In this document: piece by piece, positions 3,874-63,118 of the stretch
How positions within the stretch are numbered: the first letter of the stretch is position 1
Layout of the letters: the number at the start of each line of letters is the position of its first letter
Source: Cerrena zonata
Taxonomy: Eukaryota > Basidiomycota > Agaricomycetes > Polyporales > Cerrenaceae
Reading direction: 5' to 3'
Assembly (NCBI GenBank): GCA_038087015.1
Contig: JASBNA010000061.1
Coordinates: forward strand, 186,001-250,000
DNA length: 64,000 bases
Notes under the pieces: model-generated
The model's input: the letters and a program-made list of their open reading frames with translations, nothing else
Told to the model about the DNA's origin: nothing
Databases searched by the model: none
Program-made: the position numbers and the translations under genes

Positions 3874-3982
3874 GGGGCGAGCTGGGAATTGAACCCAGGG
3901 CCTCTCGCATGCTTAGTGTTGTTCCGTTCAGTGTACTGAACAGTCGCCCAAAGCGAGAATCATACCACTAGACCACACGCCC
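3874..3982 (-). tRNA. tRNA-Pro(UGG) with intron
   Basis: On the minus strand the gene starts GGGCGTGTGGTCTAGTGG and ends with the T-arm GGGTTCAATTCCCA and acceptor CTCGCCCC. The anticodon loop reads CTTTGGG, anticodon TGG, followed by an intron of about 37 nt that includes a self-complementary TTCAGTAC/GTACTGAA core. The mature halves match the yeast tRNA-Pro(UGG) pattern nearly base for base. A poly-T terminator (T10) lies just downstream on the minus strand. Confidence 0.96.
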
Positions 3983-6073: not shown

Positions 6074-6230
6074 TTAAAAAATTGAGTCTATGTTACGACT
6101 CAGGTCTATTTTATGATTTAGGTTCGCTACGAATGCACGTTTAAACTATTTTGAAGTACATTACGTAGACAATATCAATCCTCGCCACTCCTATGAAACT
6201 AGCTCAAAAAAAGAGTTGCAAAAAAAGAAG

Positions 6231-6351
6231 AGTCTACAGCACGATGGTTTCCATTATGGTCTCCCACTAACGTACTCAGCATCGCTCTCAGCAGCTTAAT
6301 AATTATTGATCGGACGGGTAATCATGCTTTATGCTGGATATGGCCGTAGAC
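6231..6351 (-). rRNA. 5S rRNA gene, divergent dispersed copy 1
   Basis: 121 nt, the canonical 5S length. The minus strand begins GTCTACGGCCATATCC and ends GTGCTGTAGACT. The diagnostic 5S blocks CCCGTCCGATCA, TTAAGCTGCTGAGAGC and AGTGGGAGACCAT are intact. Helix I pairs GTCTACGGC with GCTGTAGAC over 9 bp. Helix II (CAGCA/TGCTG), helix V (GCGATG/CATCGT) and helix IV (CGTTAGTGG/CCATAATG, one bulged G) also close. Many positions differ from the usual yeast 5S as I remember it, but in paired fashion. A T7 Pol III terminator follows immediately. It lies outside any rDNA repeat. Identical in sequence to the copy at 25676-25796. Confidence 0.9.
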
Positions 6352-6545
6352 GTCAATTTCGAATTCGGGGTGTTTATTCAAGCGTTTGTCTCAGGCATTT
6401 TAAAAATCTGTTCTTTTTTTCAAATCTCTAATCAAGATCCATTCCTTCACTAAAGTAAGTAAAACCATAATTAGCGAGGACAAGGAGGGCCATTATTTGA
6501 TTTCACAAAGAAAGACGACTTTATTTCTAAGTCAAATTGGAAAAA

Positions 6546-6986
6546 TGGCCAGACTGTGAGGTCTGGCGATGATGCCCGAGCCTGATTTATGTCAGAACAG
6601 ACCTCATAAATCATCAGGCCGAAGTATAACAGAGAGATGTTACAAACATACTTTGTGAAAAGTCATCGGGCCAGATAGCATAATAGTTGTACATATAAAT
6701 AAGTAAGTAATTCCATGTTAACGGAAATTCTTTCATGACTCTTCGTGGATCTTGGACCTCCGTGACTGTTCCTATTGGTTAATGAAAAGAATTAGGGCGT
6801 TTCCCATGAAGAGTTTTCCATTCGGTGATATACTTTTTGTAAATTTACTTTGTTTTGTTATATTAGTATTAATTGTAATAAGTTAAGCTAAAAAGATATA
6901 TCTATATAATAAATTAATCCACACCGTAGTTTGTTATTGGTATGTATCTGACTAGTTACCTTATTGCGTGTGTTATGGTCGTCCAT
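6546..6986 (-). mobile_element. solo LTR, full-length copy
   Basis: Minus-strand element beginning TGGACGACCATAACACACGC and ending near CACAGTCTGGCCA. It aligns end to end with the plus-strand copy at 24551-25015. Shared landmarks in order: GTCAGATACATAC, GTGGATTAATTTA, TTATTACAATTAATACTAATA, ACCGAATG.AAAACTC, TTACTTATTTATAT, GATGTTTGTAAC-like, ATAAATCAGG, and a terminal CAGACC/GGTCTG-type hairpin. TG...CA ends and length (about 440 bp) fit an LTR retrotransposon. No internal gag/pol remains were recognised beside it. Confidence 0.7.
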
Positions 6987-8107
6987 ACTGAAAAAGGTGT
7001 CTATATGTATAGTAGAAATATATGTGGTCGATAGAGGTCTGATCTACCCACATAACCCGATATCTAATGATCGATTCTGATGCTATCGAGTGAATTTTGG
7101 CATTAAATGAAGCAATATGTGGATAAGTTAATCTCTCAAATAGACTGATTGATCCTACAACCTCGTTGACTTATGAAGCGAATTATATTGGCCAACGACC
7201 AGAGAGTGTTCTTGTATTGATGGTATCTGTAAATCTACTTGGATTTTAGCAGTCAGCGTGATTTCAAAACATCAAGCTGAACTAGTCATTGCTTTTGAAG
7301 GTCTTCGTACATCTCTATATAGTACCATGCTACATGATTGTCCATTTGTAGATTTACTCTATACTACCTGGGAATGTCTGAAATACCCAAATATCAAAAG
7401 AAATCAAAAGACCTCTGACTTAGGTCATTTTCTTTTGTTTGAAGCTATACTATTGGACTATATTATTGCCTAAGAACAAGGGGAGTATTAGTCGTAATCA
7501 CTTAAAGCCACACGGAATCATTCGTAAAGTTATGGCAGTGCTCTTTGAAGTTCTAGAATAGTAACTACAACACCAATGTGATATTAGACAGGAACAAACT
7601 AATATCAATTGGTGGTGAAATATTACAGATATAATTCCATACCATTATTAGCCCTTGGCTATGCAACAGAGTATTCCCTATTGTAACAAAAGCTTTACGG
7701 TTAGTATCAAATGGTATCGAACTACTCCTTTTTTATTTAATGAATGTTTGTCAATGTAACCAAGGGTTTATCAACTAATTTTCGAACTTTATTGTGTGCC
7801 GTTCTCGTAACTTTGCAGCCATAAATTTTACAGATGAATTTTCAAAGATCAACCTTTTCGTTAACCATGAGCTAATAAATAGTCTATCTAGTTGGATTTT
7901 TGTAACTGTTTCATAGGAAATAATCTAGAATAGATAGAATAGAACAGTAACTGCCATTGTTTCCTTCTTCATGTTATTATTCTTCATGTTCTAACTTCGT
8001 TCTCCAATTAGTTTAGATTAGCTTTTATTTACAAACTATTTTTAACGATTGGTTATTTTACCAAATAAACAAAGTGTAAAGAGTATTTTCATAAGTCTTT
8101 TCCAACA
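6987..8107. other. intergenic stretch, probable long promoter and relics
   Basis: About 1.1 kb between the solo LTR and the promoter block of the secreted protein gene at 8366. A 71-codon frame at 7258-7473 has no recognisable family. Weak, drifted similarity to the region at about 9200-9530 (for example TTGCAGCCATAAATTTT versus TTGCAACCATTGATTTT) suggests the duplication that made the paralogs included upstream sequence. Confidence 0.45.
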
Positions 8108-8196: not shown

Positions 8197-8365
8197 AAAA
8201 CAAATATGAAATACTGAAATATTGGTGGTAAGTTGAAGGGTCCCCACAAAGGTAGTCAAATGGAAGAGGCAATACACCAATGGTATACGAACAGGATTAA
8301 ATTCCCATCCATGTATATTAATTTGTTTATTCATCAATCACCACAATTACAAAATTTCAAGAAAA

Positions 8366-8812
8366 ATGAAATTCGCTACTATTTTAACTGCTGCTGCTGC
8401 TTTATTTTCCTGTTCCGAAGCAATCTTTCTTACTCTTGAAGCTAAAGGAACTGAATTTGACGGGAAGAAAATCTATTATGACCGTGCAGGTCCTGGTTAC
8501 GGCTATGCACTGATAAGTACTGGTGCTGTCGCTTTTGTTCGTGATTCTGAAAACCACAAATTTTACGTGGAGAGAGATCACGATGCTTTCTTGAGTGTTG
8601 CTGGAAATGCAGTTGTAATTGGAAGAACCGATTCCTCAACTTTTGATGTTGAGTATAATTGGTTAACTTACAATGGATCATACAATAATTTTAGTGCTTG
8701 TAAGAACTTCATTCCAGGTCGAGACACAGCATATGTGCTTTATGCGGAGGATGAAAAAGATCTTGAAGGCAAGGAATGTACGAAAGTTAGAATTAGTGTT
8801 TATCAGAGCTAA
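8366..8812 (+). CDS. small secreted protein, cell-wall family paralog B
   Basis: 148 residues. Signal peptide MKFATILTAAAALFSCSEA, then mature IFLTLEAKGTEFDG. Two conserved cysteines lie in FSACKN and GKECTKV, with an N-glycosylation sequon in LTYNGS just before the first. The signal peptide is nearly identical to that of the gene at 9782 (MKFAT-LTAAAAL), showing a recent tandem relationship, whereas the mature domains have diverged strongly. There is no GPI anchor signal. The fold is likely the Pir/Cwp1-like beta domain seen in yeast wall proteins (inference). Confidence 0.78.
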   Translation: MKFATILTAAAALFSCSEAIFLTLEAKGTEFDGKKIYYDRAGPGYGYALISTGAVAFVRDSENHKFYVERDHDAFLSVAGNAVVIGRTDSSTFDVEYNWLTYNGSYNNFSACKNFIPGRDTAYVLYAEDEKDLEGKECTKVRISVYQS

Positions 8813-9622: not shown

Positions 9623-9781
9623 AGTATATCAATAAACATACGAATTATACTTGTGATGAAGTGTTCGGGGAGAGTGGAAGAGACCAACGAAGATAGATAA
9701 AGGCAATGGTATATAAGGAGACCCAATTCCCAACCATGGTGGTCAATTTATCTTTTTATTAATCACTACAATTACAAAAAA

Positions 9782-10219
9782 ATGAAATTCGCTACCTTTT
9801 TAACTGCTGCTGCTGCTTTATTATCCTCTTCCAATGCTTTCACCTTAATCGTCAAAGATGACGGGTCAGAATACGATGGATTACACTTAAGTAGCTACCC
9901 GGATGGTACTAACTACGGTCCTGTGTTCTTGGCCGACAGCAATCCAACTGACTTCACTTATGAAGGAACACTTAACGTGACGGATGATGAATCTGCTGCT
10001 CTTGGAGTCTACCAAAATCAAGTTGAAATTGGAGCCCGTGCAGACACAAAAGTTTCACTTCACAATCATGTTTTCACTTACAATGGCACCTCCGATTGCT
10101 TCAGAGCTTGTACCGAAGTTACTGCCTACCAACCTGGACCATTTATTCTTTTCTCTAAAGACGAAGAATATTTTGCAGGCAAGGGATGTACTCCAATCAG
10201 ACTCGAGGCTGCTTGGTAA
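9782..10219 (+). CDS. small secreted protein, cell-wall family paralog C
   Basis: 145 residues. Signal peptide MKFATFLTAAAALLSSSNA, then mature FTLIVKDDGSEYDGLHL. Cysteines are in the same two places as the paralogs (FRACTEV and GKGCTPI; one extra Cys precedes the first), with sequons at NVT and NGT. Codon choice here is rich in preferred codons (GGT, GCT, ACC, AAC), suggesting strong expression. Short C-terminus IRLEAAW without a GPI signal. Downstream neighbour of paralog B in the same orientation with a duplicated promoter block. Confidence 0.78.
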   Translation: MKFATFLTAAAALLSSSNAFTLIVKDDGSEYDGLHLSSYPDGTNYGPVFLADSNPTDFTYEGTLNVTDDESAALGVYQNQVEIGARADTKVSLHNHVFTYNGTSDCFRACTEVTAYQPGPFILFSKDEEYFAGKGCTPIRLEAAW

Positions 10220-15617: not shown

Positions 15618-15826
15618 CTTAAAAAAATTATATTTAATTTATAATCGCTCAATTTTTTCCACCAAAATACTTTTTTCCAACCAAAGAATCCCCTCAGCTG
15701 ATAATGTGTGTATAGAATTGATGAAAATAACGTTATTTTCAAAAACAACTTTTTATGCTGAATTCAAATATCCTTTTAAAAGAAAGTTCTCTGGACAAAC
15801 CATATTTTCAAAACGTCATACAATTA
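15618..15826. repeat. tRNA-Ser upstream block, copy 1
   Basis: Diverged duplicate of 23514-23720 (inverted orientation). Shared blocks upstream of the tRNA: TATAATCGCTCAATTTTTTCCA, TTTTTTCCAACCAAAGAAT, AGAATTGATGAAAATAAC, TTCAAATATCCT-TTAAAAGAA and CAAACCATATTTTCAAAACG. Similarity rises toward the tRNA. Confidence 0.75.
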
Positions 15827-15908
15827 GGCAACTTGTCCGAGTGGTTAAGGAGAAAGATTAGAAATCTTTTGGGCTTTGCCCGCGCAGGTTCGAATCCTGC
15901 AGTTGTCG
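15827..15908 (+). tRNA. tRNA-Ser(AGA)
   Basis: 82 nt. Acceptor GGCAACT pairs with AGTTGTC. D-arm CCGAGTGGTTAAGG, anticodon stem-loop AAAGATTAGAAATCTTT with AGA, class-II variable arm GGGCTTTGCCC, T-arm GCAGGTTCGAATCCTGC, and a T-rich terminator downstream. The AGA anticodon would be I34 in the mature tRNA and read TCT/TCC. Duplicate on the opposite strand at 23432-23513. Confidence 0.97.
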
Positions 15909-16071
15909 TTATTTTTTTCGATTTTTTTTATACCTTACATGTATGAAGTCTTTATATTATACTTCCTATATATATATTCAACTACAATACGTAAAGATTA
16001 ACTCATTAAAATAAGTTCAATTGATGAATAATACATGAATAATATACAAAAATAACAATCATTAATTAATC

Positions 16072-23285: not shown

Positions 23286-23431
23286 TGTGAATGAGTACCT
23301 TTGAGATTAGAGTAAACCACATTCTACTAAAGAGTATAACCCTGCTTTATACTTTATCTCAAGTACATAAGTTTAATTGTATGCCATTGAAAAGTTAAAA
23401 AAAAATGGTATTCTAAACAAAAAAAAAATAA

Positions 23432-23513
23432 CGACAACTGCAGGATTCGAACCTGCGCGGGCAAAGCCCAAAAGATTTCTAATCTTTCTCCTTAACCACT
23501 CGGACAAGTTGCC
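23432..23513 (-). tRNA. tRNA-Ser(AGA), inverted copy
   Basis: Same 82-nt sequence as 15827-15908 on the opposite strand, including the AGA anticodon, variable arm GGGCTTTGCCC and T-arm. The T-rich terminator lies at about 23421-23430 on the minus strand. Confidence 0.97.
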
Positions 23514-23720
23514 TAATTGTATGACGTTTTGAAAATATGGTTTGCCCAGAAGACATTCTTTTAAGAGGATATTTGGAATCAACATGAAAATTTTTTTCAA
23601 AAATATGGTTATTTTCATCAATTCTGTACACTAATTAGCCTTTGTGGGAATTCTTTGGTTGGAAAAAAACTATTTTAGTGGAAAAAAAACTCGAGCGACT
23701 ATAAAATAAATATAGTTTTC
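23514..23720. repeat. tRNA-Ser upstream block, copy 2 (inverted)
   Basis: Reverse complement reads TAGTCGCTCGAGTTTTTTTTCC, TTTTTTCCAACCAAAGAAT, AGAATTGATGAAAATAACC, TTCCAAATATCCTCTTAAAAG and CAAACCATATTTTCAAAACG, matching 15618-15826 block by block with substitutions and small indels. Confidence 0.75.
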
Positions 23721-24550
23721 TTTATTTTTTCAATTTTTTCAATTTTTTTCGAAAAAACTCAGCATGGTCTTGATATCGACAAAACAGTTGGAAATTAAAC
23801 CTTGCTTTCTGTTTATTTTTATACTTTTTGGGCGTGCTTTGCTGCTGGCCGCTCGAGGGATTAAGACGTAACAAAGAAACTAAAGTATTACTTTCTTGTA
23901 TTTGGCTGCTTATTTCTACAGTACATATACCAGGATCAGACTAGCTCAACATATGATATAGGTATTCGGTTAATCTTTAGTTTTACTCAATCTCTTATTC
24001 ATCTTCTTCTACTGTGTCAGCTTCCCAGACAGCAAGCCTCTAGATAATCTTATGCTTGTATAAATAGGTTTTCCACACGAGATGATAACCTGTGTCAATC
24101 ATGGACATTAGGGATTCCTCAAGTTTGGATCTTCTTTGGTTTTAATTAAATTTTAAAATTTACTTAATCATCCCTTTAATAACTACGTAAAGATTAAGGA
24201 ACGAAAATATACCAACTAATCGACTACTGTCCAATATTGTATGGTGTATCCTGCGACTACGTTTTGAAAACCTTGTATACTCTCAACCATTTTGCTCGAT
24301 ACAGTAGAGTCCTAAGATTACTAGGATCAAAGCCAAAGCTGCCATGCCAGTATCAGACCCTATCTAAAGAGTTATTACAGTTGAGTAACATGAATGGAAA
24401 CTGAAAATACTGACGCTAGCTCGAAAAAGATAAAGTTGCAAAATTCCATAATACTATTTTGAAAAGATTCACTCACACTAAGATATTGTTGCCATTGGTT
24501 AATACTTGAAAAGAGGCTCGGCCGACGAGATAAACTAAATGATGGCTACA
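23721..24550. other. intergenic stretch, no gene seen
   Basis: About 830 bases between the duplicated tRNA block and the solo LTR. T-rich at the left end (TTTTTTCAATTTTTTCAATTTTTTTC). No coding or RNA signal recognised. Confidence 0.45.
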
Positions 24551-25015
24551 TGGACCACCATAACACGCAGTTAGCTATTAGTCAGATACATACTAATAAC
24601 GATTAGTGGTGGATTAATTTACTAATTAGATTAATCTTTTAGCTGTTATTGAAGGGAGAATAACTTTATTACAATTAATACTAATATGATAAAAGCCATA
24701 AATAAAATATATATATTATTATTGTCAAAACCGAATGAAAACTCTCTGTAGGGCATCGACCCACTCTTCAATCCATTAATCTATAGGATTAGCCACTTAG
24801 GTCCACCCCCCAAAAAGTCTTCTAGACATTTCCATCAGATGAGGAAATGCCTACTTATTTATATACTTGTTCTCGTAAAAGATGCTCTCTTCCGATGTTG
24901 TTTCGCAAAAGATGTTTGTAACACCTTTTGCTTAAACCTCAGCTTGATGATGTCTGTGATCTGCCTTGACGTAAATCAGGCCCAGACATCACCGCCAGAC
25001 CTTCACGGTCTGACA
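24551..25015 (+). mobile_element. solo LTR, full-length copy (plus strand)
   Basis: Begins TGGACCACCATAACACGCAG and ends CAGACCTTCACGGTCTGACA, so it has TG...CA ends and a terminal hairpin. It aligns along its length with the minus-strand copy 6546-6986 and, internally deleted, with 15081-15308. A 119-codon frame overlapping it (24839-25198) is not supported as a gene. No pol fragment is attached. Confidence 0.7.
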
Positions 25016-25675: not shown

Positions 25676-25796
25676 AGTCTACAGCACGATGGTTTCCATT
25701 ATGGTCTCCCACTAACGTACTCAGCATCGCTCTCAGCAGCTTAATAATTATTGATCGGACGGGTAATCATGCTTTATGCTGGATATGGCCGTAGAC
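25676..25796 (-). rRNA. 5S rRNA gene, divergent dispersed copy 2
   Basis: 121 nt and base-for-base the same as 6231-6351 in my comparison, including all helix partners. The T8 terminator follows on the minus strand. The 5' flank (ATCAAACTCAAATTCAGGGT) resembles but is not identical to that of copy 1 (GTCAATTTCGAATTCGGGGT). Far from any rDNA unit. Confidence 0.9.
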
Positions 25797-62182: not shown

Positions 62183-63118
62183 ATGTTTCTTCACCAACTC
62201 TTAACCATGTTCAATCCAAGTACTCGTGCTGCTGCTGGTGCAGTCGGTAAGAGGTTCGTTAGAAACAAAATAACTTCGAGTTCAACCTCAGCACTTGCTT
62301 ATAAGACTTTACATCGTAATCAAAAAAGACCTCCATTACCAACTTTAGAAACCCCAAATTGGTCAGCTGATGCAGCAGTTTCTTCTATTCTTTATGAAAC
62401 TCCAGTTCCATCCAAGGCTCCAAGAAAACAACACGTTTTGAACTGTTTGGTTCAAAATGAACCGGGGGTGTTATCATCAGTATCTGGAACTTTAGCCGCC
62501 CGTGGATTCAATATTGATTCTTTAGTTGTTTGTTCAACTGAAGTTAAAGATTTATCAAGAATGACCATTGTTTTAGGTGGTCAGGATGCAGTTATTGAAC
62601 AAGCAAGAAGACAAATTGAAGACTTGGTCCCGGTTTATGCGGTTTTGGATTATACTAATGCTCAAATCATTAAACGTGAATTATTATTAGCAAGAGTTTC
62701 ATTATTAGGTCCAGAATACTTCCAAGAATTAATCGCCACCCATAAATTACATACCAGTGAAGCAACCTCGATCCCTGATTTAAGTGCTACTGAACTGCAA
62801 TTCCATCCAAATAATTTGGTTCCAAGTGAAGCTTTAAGACAAAAACATCTTCATTTAGAACATATTTCAACAATCACCGAAAAATTCGGCGGTAAAATCG
62901 TAGATATCTCCACTAGAAACGTCATTGTTGAATTAAGTGCTAAACCAAGTCGTGTTTCCAGTTTTATTCAATTATTACATCCTTTTGGTATTTTAGAAAT
63001 CGCCAGATCTGGTATGATGGCTTTACCAAGAACTCCTTTGGATGGTAATAACGTCGAAGACGAAGAACCTATCGACGCTGCCGACATCGTCGACGCTTCT
63101 CAATTACCTCCTGGTTGA
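62183..63118 (+). CDS. ILV6: ILV6, acetolactate synthase regulatory subunit
   Basis: 311 residues from MFLHQLLTMFNPS (an internal ATG, MFNPS at 62207, is an equally good start; the frame opens 12 bases earlier at TTG). Mitochondrial presequence, then STSALAYKTLHRNQKRPPLPTLETPNW, ACT domain HVLNCLVQNEPGVLSSVSGTLAARGFNIDSLVV, DLVPVYAVLDYT, the second ACT-like half and the C-terminal ARSGMMALPRTPL...ASQLPPG, nearly as in S. cerevisiae Ilv6. It confers valine feedback on Ilv2 in branched-chain amino-acid synthesis. Confidence 0.97.
   Translation: MFLHQLLTMFNPSTRAAAGAVGKRFVRNKITSSSTSALAYKTLHRNQKRPPLPTLETPNWSADAAVSSILYETPVPSKAPRKQHVLNCLVQNEPGVLSSVSGTLAARGFNIDSLVVCSTEVKDLSRMTIVLGGQDAVIEQARRQIEDLVPVYAVLDYTNAQIIKRELLLARVSLLGPEYFQELIATHKLHTSEATSIPDLSATELQFHPNNLVPSEALRQKHLHLEHISTITEKFGGKIVDISTRNVIVELSAKPSRVSSFIQLLHPFGILEIARSGMMALPRTPLDGNNVEDEEPIDAADIVDASQLPPG

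What the first reader, a model, noticed from the sequence alone, without database searches (positions are those of the whole stretch)
6231..6351. Divergent 5S rRNA gene with compensatory changes in every helix examined
The copy keeps the 5S invariant blocks and 121-nt length but differs from the ordinary yeast/Candida 5S (as I recall it) at roughly a quarter of positions. In each stem I could check, changes are paired: helix I GTCTAC/GTAGAC replaces GGTTGC/GCAATC; helix II has a T-A to C-G swap; helix III GTT/AAC becomes ATT/AAT; helix IV CGTTA/TAATG replaces GTGTA/TACGC; helix V GCGATG/CATCGT replaces GCAATA/TATTGT. That is the signature of a selected RNA, not a decaying pseudogene. Dispersed 5S genes are known in Yarrowia, S. 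pombe and Neurospora, but CTG-clade yeasts usually carry 5S within rDNA. Either the species has moved 5S out of the rDNA or it has a second 5S type.
Basis: partly seen in the sequence, partly recalled or inferred. Interest (0 to 1): 0.8.

Follow-up and report, generated by a model that had tools for sequence, protein, structure and literature searches.

The report
Scattered 5S rRNA genes of Hyphopichia
This is a normal-looking 5S ribosomal RNA gene of a Hyphopichia yeast, one of 36 scattered copies found in yeast DNA mixed into a wood-rotting fungus's assembly; the scattering was already in print, and how far its sequence has drifted is the only mildly new part.

Summary
Window 6231-6351 (minus strand) is a full-length 5S rRNA gene (Rfam 61.2 bits, gathering score 38), with an identical copy at 25676-25796. 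Of 36 helix pairs I defined, 15 are touched, 14 on both sides, and 13 of the 15 still pair; two are lost.

The own-assembly search found 36 copies, 29 identical, on 22 contigs. All 36 have a T-run terminator. The 29 upstream flanks unlike each other share a TATA-like/AACC motif near -28 to -13. Four copies carry another compensatory pair. I read this as a live Pol III gene family.

A window protein is 99% identical to a Hyphopichia burtonii cluster; a sampled large contig is Cerrena zonata. So the 55.5 Mb assembly is mixed and this window is yeast. A 2017 review says H. burtonii has only dispersed 5S copies (PMC5499181, passages): the main surprise is known. Side result: LTR-like repeats cluster here, 17 of 44 within 1.5 kb of a 5S. 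No Hyphopichia rDNA unit was found, but the SSU and LSU family searches failed.

The parts
6231..6351 (-). 5S rRNA gene, copy 1 (the finding)
   Evidence: Rfam RF00001 61.2 bits, model 1-120 of 120; identical to 28 other copies in the assembly
6220..6230 (-). Pol III T-run terminator of copy 1 (CTTCTTTTTTT on the minus strand)
   Evidence: read from the sequence; T-run of 5 or more within 20 nt in 36 of 36 copies, matched random positions mean 2.0, maximum 8 of 36
6369..6378 (-). upstream TATA-like/ACC element of copy 1 (about -27 to -18, AATAAACACC)
   Evidence: 29 flanks under 65% alike: information at -28..-13 is 5.27 bits against a null mean 1.00 and maximum 2.74 in 1000 draws; promoter role inferred
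6552..7062 (-). LTR-like repeat about 200 bp upstream of copy 1 (divergent solo-LTR type)
   Evidence: 44 matches in the assembly, 17 within 1.5 kb of a 5S; 5-bp direct repeats flank 3 of 6 copies with both ends visible, but not this one (by eye)
25676..25796 (-). 5S rRNA gene, copy 2, identical to copy 1
   Evidence: Rfam RF00001 61.2 bits
25665..25675 (-). T-run terminator of copy 2
   Evidence: L026
24550..25010 (+). LTR-like repeat, partial, downstream of copy 2 and on the opposite strand
   Evidence: G000:C61:210550-211010, 69% identical to the 6552-7064 query

Best explanation
A functional 5S rRNA gene of Hyphopichia burtonii or a very close relative, one member of a dispersed family of at least 36 single genes. 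Shown: position, covariance fit, near-uniform sequence across copies on mostly unrelated flanks, terminators, and a shared upstream motif. Inferred: each copy is transcribed by RNA polymerase III from the internal 5S promoter (TFIIIA/TFIIIC) helped by the TATA-like element near -25, ends at the T-run, and the product is the 5S of the ribosome; copies are kept alike by gene conversion; the RNA drifted while its helices were kept by paired changes. The window belongs to the yeast part of a mixed assembly whose larger part is the polypore Cerrena zonata.
For: Rfam match over the whole model; 36 copies, 29 identical, by DNA search, on 22 contigs totalling 7.57 Mb; 34 of 36 pairs standard despite 35 differences from a recalled C. 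albicans 5S; paired changes beyond shuffles; C19T with G60A together in 4 of 36 copies, a further swap of one pair; T-run in 36 of 36; upstream motif; window ILV6 99% identical over 97% to a Hyphopichia burtonii NRRL Y-1933 cluster; window GC 35.6% and published H. burtonii GC 35.16%, 12.3 Mb (PMC12165387, passages); published statement that H. burtonii has only dispersed copies (PMC5499181, passages); contig C18 protein 100% identical to a Cerrena zonata record whose contig length equals C18's 720,413.
Against: No transcript data. Two of 36 pairs are mismatched in the major sequence, and Rfam's alignment marks 5 pairs non-standard. The yeast's rDNA unit was not found: the SSU and LSU family searches failed, and the 5.8S search gave one degenerate copy only, so absence of 5S from rDNA rests on the review. 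Comparison 5S sequences were recalled. 3 of 15 contig samples do not have the 42-49% GC of the larger part: 2 are near 35% and one is 25%.
Confidence: 0.93

Rival explanations
1. A minor or second 5S type: the rDNA array holds an ordinary Candida-like 5S that makes most ribosomal 5S, and the dispersed family is a variant or regulatory pool.
For: The rDNA unit is missing from the assembly as far as I could see, so its 5S content was not observed.
Against: The review says H. burtonii only has dispersed copies (passage); neither 5S search found an ordinary yeast 5S in the assembly, though only 47 of 2382 candidates were scored.
Confidence: 0.04
2. A decaying pseudogene family spread by retroposition or by the neighbouring LTR elements, no longer expressed.
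For: LTR-like repeats lie near 17 of 36 copies; one degenerate 5S-like match exists on C59 (35.5 bits), though probably of the other fungus.
Against: 29 of 36 identical, 7 with 1-4 changes; paired substitutions; terminators 36 of 36.
Confidence: 0.02
3. The 5S belongs to the 55 Mb host genome itself (a large-genome yeast), not to a second organism in a mixed assembly.
For: All contigs sit in one assembly of 55,512,806 bases.
Against: ILV6 in the window is 99% identical to a Hyphopichia cluster, while contig C18 encodes a Cerrena zonata protein at 100%; GC of the 36 5S loci is 31.9-39.2%, whereas 12 of 15 other contig samples are 41.7-49.3%.
Confidence: 0.02

Closest known systems
5S rRNA (Rfam RF00001)
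   Same: full-length match, 121 nt, conserved blocks, 34 of 36 helix pairs standard
   Different: 29% different from recalled S. cerevisiae and C. albicans 5S
Dispersed 5S genes of H. burtonii, Metschnikowia bicuspidata and Komagataella phaffii (PMC5499181, passage, citing Riley et al. 2016, which I could not open)
   Same: multiple dispersed copies; very probably the same species or a near relative as H. burtonii
   Different: nothing structural; the passages I saw do not discuss sequence divergence, upstream motif or repeats
Dispersed 5S of Yarrowia lipolytica (116), Blastobotrys adeninivorans (30), Nadsonia (about 115), Komagataella (21-23), Trichomonascus vanleenenianus (36) (passages)
   Same: scattered single genes outside rDNA; similar copy number to Blastobotrys and Trichomonascus
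   Different: in Trichomonascus all, and in Yarrowia about half, are in tandem with or fused to tRNA genes; here the nearest tRNA found by ARAGORN is 928 bp away
Ty1-type insertion upstream of Pol III genes (PMC5911963, passages)
   Same: LTR-like repeats mostly upstream, 164-1097 bp from the 5S, like the ~1 kb window of Ty1
   Different: no intact element was found; the one internal stretch I read holds ordinary genes; repeat starts TATCGGG rather than TG

Membership tests
5S rRNA (RF00001) | covariance score above the gathering score over the full model | tested here: met
   61.2 against 38 bits, model 1-120 of 120
5S rRNA (RF00001) | five helices kept under substitution | tested here: met
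   34 of 36 defined pairs standard; two lost
5S rRNA (RF00001) | Pol III terminator directly 3' of the gene | tested here: met
   36 of 36 copies
5S rRNA (RF00001) | transcribed and built into ribosomes | not testable with these tools
   no RNA data
Dispersed 5S arrangement | single copies at many unlinked places with unrelated flanks | tested here: met
   36 copies on 22 contigs; 29 of 36 upstream flanks under 65% alike; L038 and L039 are near-duplicates over both flanks
Dispersed 5S arrangement | no 5S inside the rDNA unit | tested here: inconclusive
   yeast rDNA unit not found; SSU and LSU searches failed; review states it for H. burtonii
tRNA-5S dicistronic genes (Yarrowia type) | tRNA gene fused or within a few bases of 5S | tested here: not met
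   ARAGORN, bacterial mode, found tRNAs in 7 of 36 loci, nearest 928 bp from the 5S; it can miss tRNAs with introns
LTR retrotransposon (repeat at 6552-7062) | target-site duplication | tested here: inconclusive
   5-bp direct repeats by eye at 3 of 6 copies with both ends visible (L001, L018, L035), not at the window's copy
LTR retrotransposon (repeat at 6552-7062) | internal gag-pol between two copies | tested here: inconclusive
   only one pair tested, C13, and the 3 kb read there holds ordinary genes

The most novel reading that the evidence does not exclude
On leaving the rDNA array, Hyphopichia 5S went through a burst of compensatory change and gained an upstream TATA-like promoter element, so that its transcription depends less on the internal TFIIIA-bound promoter; its binding partners (TFIIIA, Rpl5, Rpl11) changed with it, and the scattered genes became the preferred landing sites of an LTR element.
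Probability: 0.2. Interest if true: 0.5.

Novelty: already known. Interest (0 to 1): 0.22.

Why it matters
It corrects the source: the window is Hyphopichia DNA inside an assembly that also holds Cerrena zonata, so 55.5 Mb is not a yeast genome size. It documents, with copies, flanks and controls, a dispersed 5S family in a CTG-clade yeast that I found named in print only in one sentence of a review. The strong drift of an RNA that is near-constant among the two recalled yeasts makes it a usable case for asking whether leaving the rDNA array frees 5S to evolve.

Tried and rejected
Ordinary large-genome yeast: rejected on the Cerrena zonata match and GC. tRNA-5S fusion: not seen. A decayed family: rejected on uniformity and pairing. 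The two LTR-like copies on C13 about 6 kb apart as one element: rejected, the stretch between them holds ordinary reading frames (L058). An exact 23-base 5S pattern in viral contigs: 0 matches. Literature: six searches bearing on print status of the 5S or of this assembly gave only PMC5499181 for Hyphopichia with 5S; two on genome papers and one on contamination found no report of the mixture in the listings. Riley et al. 2016 and Acker et al. 2008 are not held. Caveats on the repeat statistic: the query was chosen because it lies by a 5S and is one of the 44; several matches are fragments; the match list is a lower bound; the uniform expectation of 0.4 uses 12.38 Mb; nearness of the other 27 to tRNA genes was not tested.

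Full report
What is there. The finding lies on the minus strand at 6231-6351 and matches Rfam RF00001 from end to end at 61.2 bits (gathering score 38). A second, identical gene lies at 25676-25796, also minus. Window tRNA genes by Rfam are at 3874-3982 (-), 15827-15908 (+) and 23432-23513 (-); ARAGORN found the latter two only.

Paired changes. I defined 36 pairs in five helices. Against the C. albicans sequence, 29 of 35 differences fall in the 72 paired columns; 15 pairs are touched, 14 on both sides, 13 remain standard. Lost are pairs 21/58 and 29/49. Random placement of 29 changes reached at most 28 standard pairs of 36 in 20,000 trials, against 34 observed. On 10 distinct rows the number of pairs with changes on both sides was 15 (shuffles 5.8 on average, 0 of 500 as high; slid structures 0 or 1); the number of further pair types, 17, was reached in 15 of 500 shuffles. 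The pairs were chosen by me with these sequences in view, which favours them; Rfam's own alignment marks 10 columns, five pairs, as non-standard.

The family. A DNA search of the window's own assembly (G000, 55,512,806 bases, 171 contigs) found 36 copies, all 36 candidates scored: 29 identical, 7 with 1 to 4 changes. They lie on 22 contigs totalling 7.57 Mb. In four copies (L002, L003, L034, L036) C19T and G60A occur together, turning one C-G pair of helix II into T-A. Other changes in variants break pairs: in L035 pair 20/59, and in L036 pair 69/109. The Rfam family search gave the same 36 plus one weak match, 35.5 bits, on C59 (47 of 2382 candidates scored), which looks like a basidiomycete 5S remnant as I recall that sequence.

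Signals around the genes. A run of five or more T begins within 20 nt after the gene in 36 of 36 copies; random positions in the same loci gave a mean of 2.0 and a maximum of 8 of 36 in 2000 draws. Taking only flanks under 65% alike over 60 nt (29 of 36), columns -28 to -13 hold 5.27 bits against a mean of 1.00 and a maximum of 2.74 in 1000 draws; single columns above the 95% limit are -26, -22, -14, -2 and -1. The motif reads roughly TATAnnAAACC. CC within -20 to -17 is present in 17 of 29, so the element is not universal. That it is a promoter element is inference. ARAGORN found tRNA genes in 7 of the 36 loci, none nearer than 928 bp to the 5S, so the tRNA-5S fusions of Yarrowia and Trichomonascus (passages) are not seen.

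Repeats. Flanks of many copies share a repeat of about 510-540 bp. The window's copy is 6552-7062 (-), about 200 bp upstream of the gene. A search with it gave 44 matches (a lower bound). Seventeen lie within 1.5 kb of a 5S, by 17 different 5S genes; 13 are upstream, 12 of these in the orientation of the 5S, at 164 to 1097 bp; 4 are downstream. Uniform placement over 12.38 Mb predicts 0.4. Of six copies with both ends visible in the loci held, three (L001, L018, L035) are flanked by exact 5-bp repeats by eye. I read these as solo LTRs of an element that, like Ty1 (passages of PMC5911963), inserts upstream of Pol III genes. No intact element was found; a pair on C13 is not one.

Whose DNA. The ILV6 protein at 62183-63118 is 99% identical over 97% to a protein cluster named for Hyphopichia burtonii NRRL Y-1933. 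Published H. burtonii assemblies are 12.3 Mb, 35.16% GC (PMC12165387, passages); the window is 35.6% and the 36 5S loci 31.9-39.2%. Of 15 samples from contigs without a 5S, 12 are 41.7-49.3% GC, two about 35%, one 25%. A protein on C18 is 100% identical to Cerrena zonata, in a record whose contig length, 720,413, is that of C18. I conclude that a Hyphopichia genome is mixed into a Cerrena zonata assembly; only one protein of each part was identified.

rDNA. The family searches for SSU and LSU rRNA failed on the server. A recalled 18S piece matched only contig C159, 93% over 54 of 172 bases, where Rfam sees a truncated eukaryotic SSU with no 5.8S in the 6 kb read. The only 5.8S match is degenerate, 105 of 160 alignment columns identical to a recalled S. 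cerevisiae 5.8S, on C76 between tRNA genes. So the yeast rDNA unit was not seen, and the claim that it lacks 5S rests on Dujon and Louis 2017, which says that M. bicuspidata, H. burtonii and K. [quoted passage not shown]

Verdict. A true, very probably working 5S gene; dispersal already in print; the degree of drift, the upstream motif and the LTR association were not found in print in the searches named under Tried and rejected, which cover only openly licensed papers.

Noticed in passing
G000 C18 and other large contigs; window contig C61: The assembly mixes Hyphopichia (about 35% GC) with the polypore Cerrena zonata (about 42-49% GC).
   Followed up: partly
window 6552-7062 (-); 24550-25010 (+); 44 places in G000: LTR-like repeat concentrated near 5S genes: 17 of 44 matches within 1.5 kb, 13 upstream.
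   Followed up: partly
several 5S flanks (L007, L010, L016, L028, L034, L035, L037): A second repeat of about 100-160 bp, mostly 90% or more alike, recurs near these seven 5S genes, in most of them a few hundred bp or less upstream.
   Followed up: no
L033:1-155 (-), contig C76: Lone degenerate full-length 5.8S-like sequence between tRNA genes, no SSU or LSU match in the 20 kb around it, no flanking direct repeat of 6 nt or more in 60 nt; probably a pseudogene.
   Followed up: partly
L040:4965-5071 (-), contig C59: 5S-like match of 35.5 bits, below the gathering score, of basidiomycete look as I recall it; a retroelement-like reading frame lies about 1.4 kb away.
   Followed up: no
C159:1-1179: Truncated eukaryotic SSU rRNA running straight into non-rRNA sequence.
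   Followed up: no
window 15743-15918 and 23422-23597: Inverted repeat of 176 nt, 94% complementary, carrying the two identical tRNA-Ser(AGA) genes 7.5 kb apart.
   Followed up: no
L027:1417-1435: An extra exact copy of the last 19 nt of the 5S, 66 bp downstream of a full gene.
   Followed up: no
window 8345-8421 and 9761-9837: Two similar 77-nt stretches 1.4 kb apart, 83% alike, that contain an ATG and read like two related signal-peptide starts (reading by eye).
   Followed up: no
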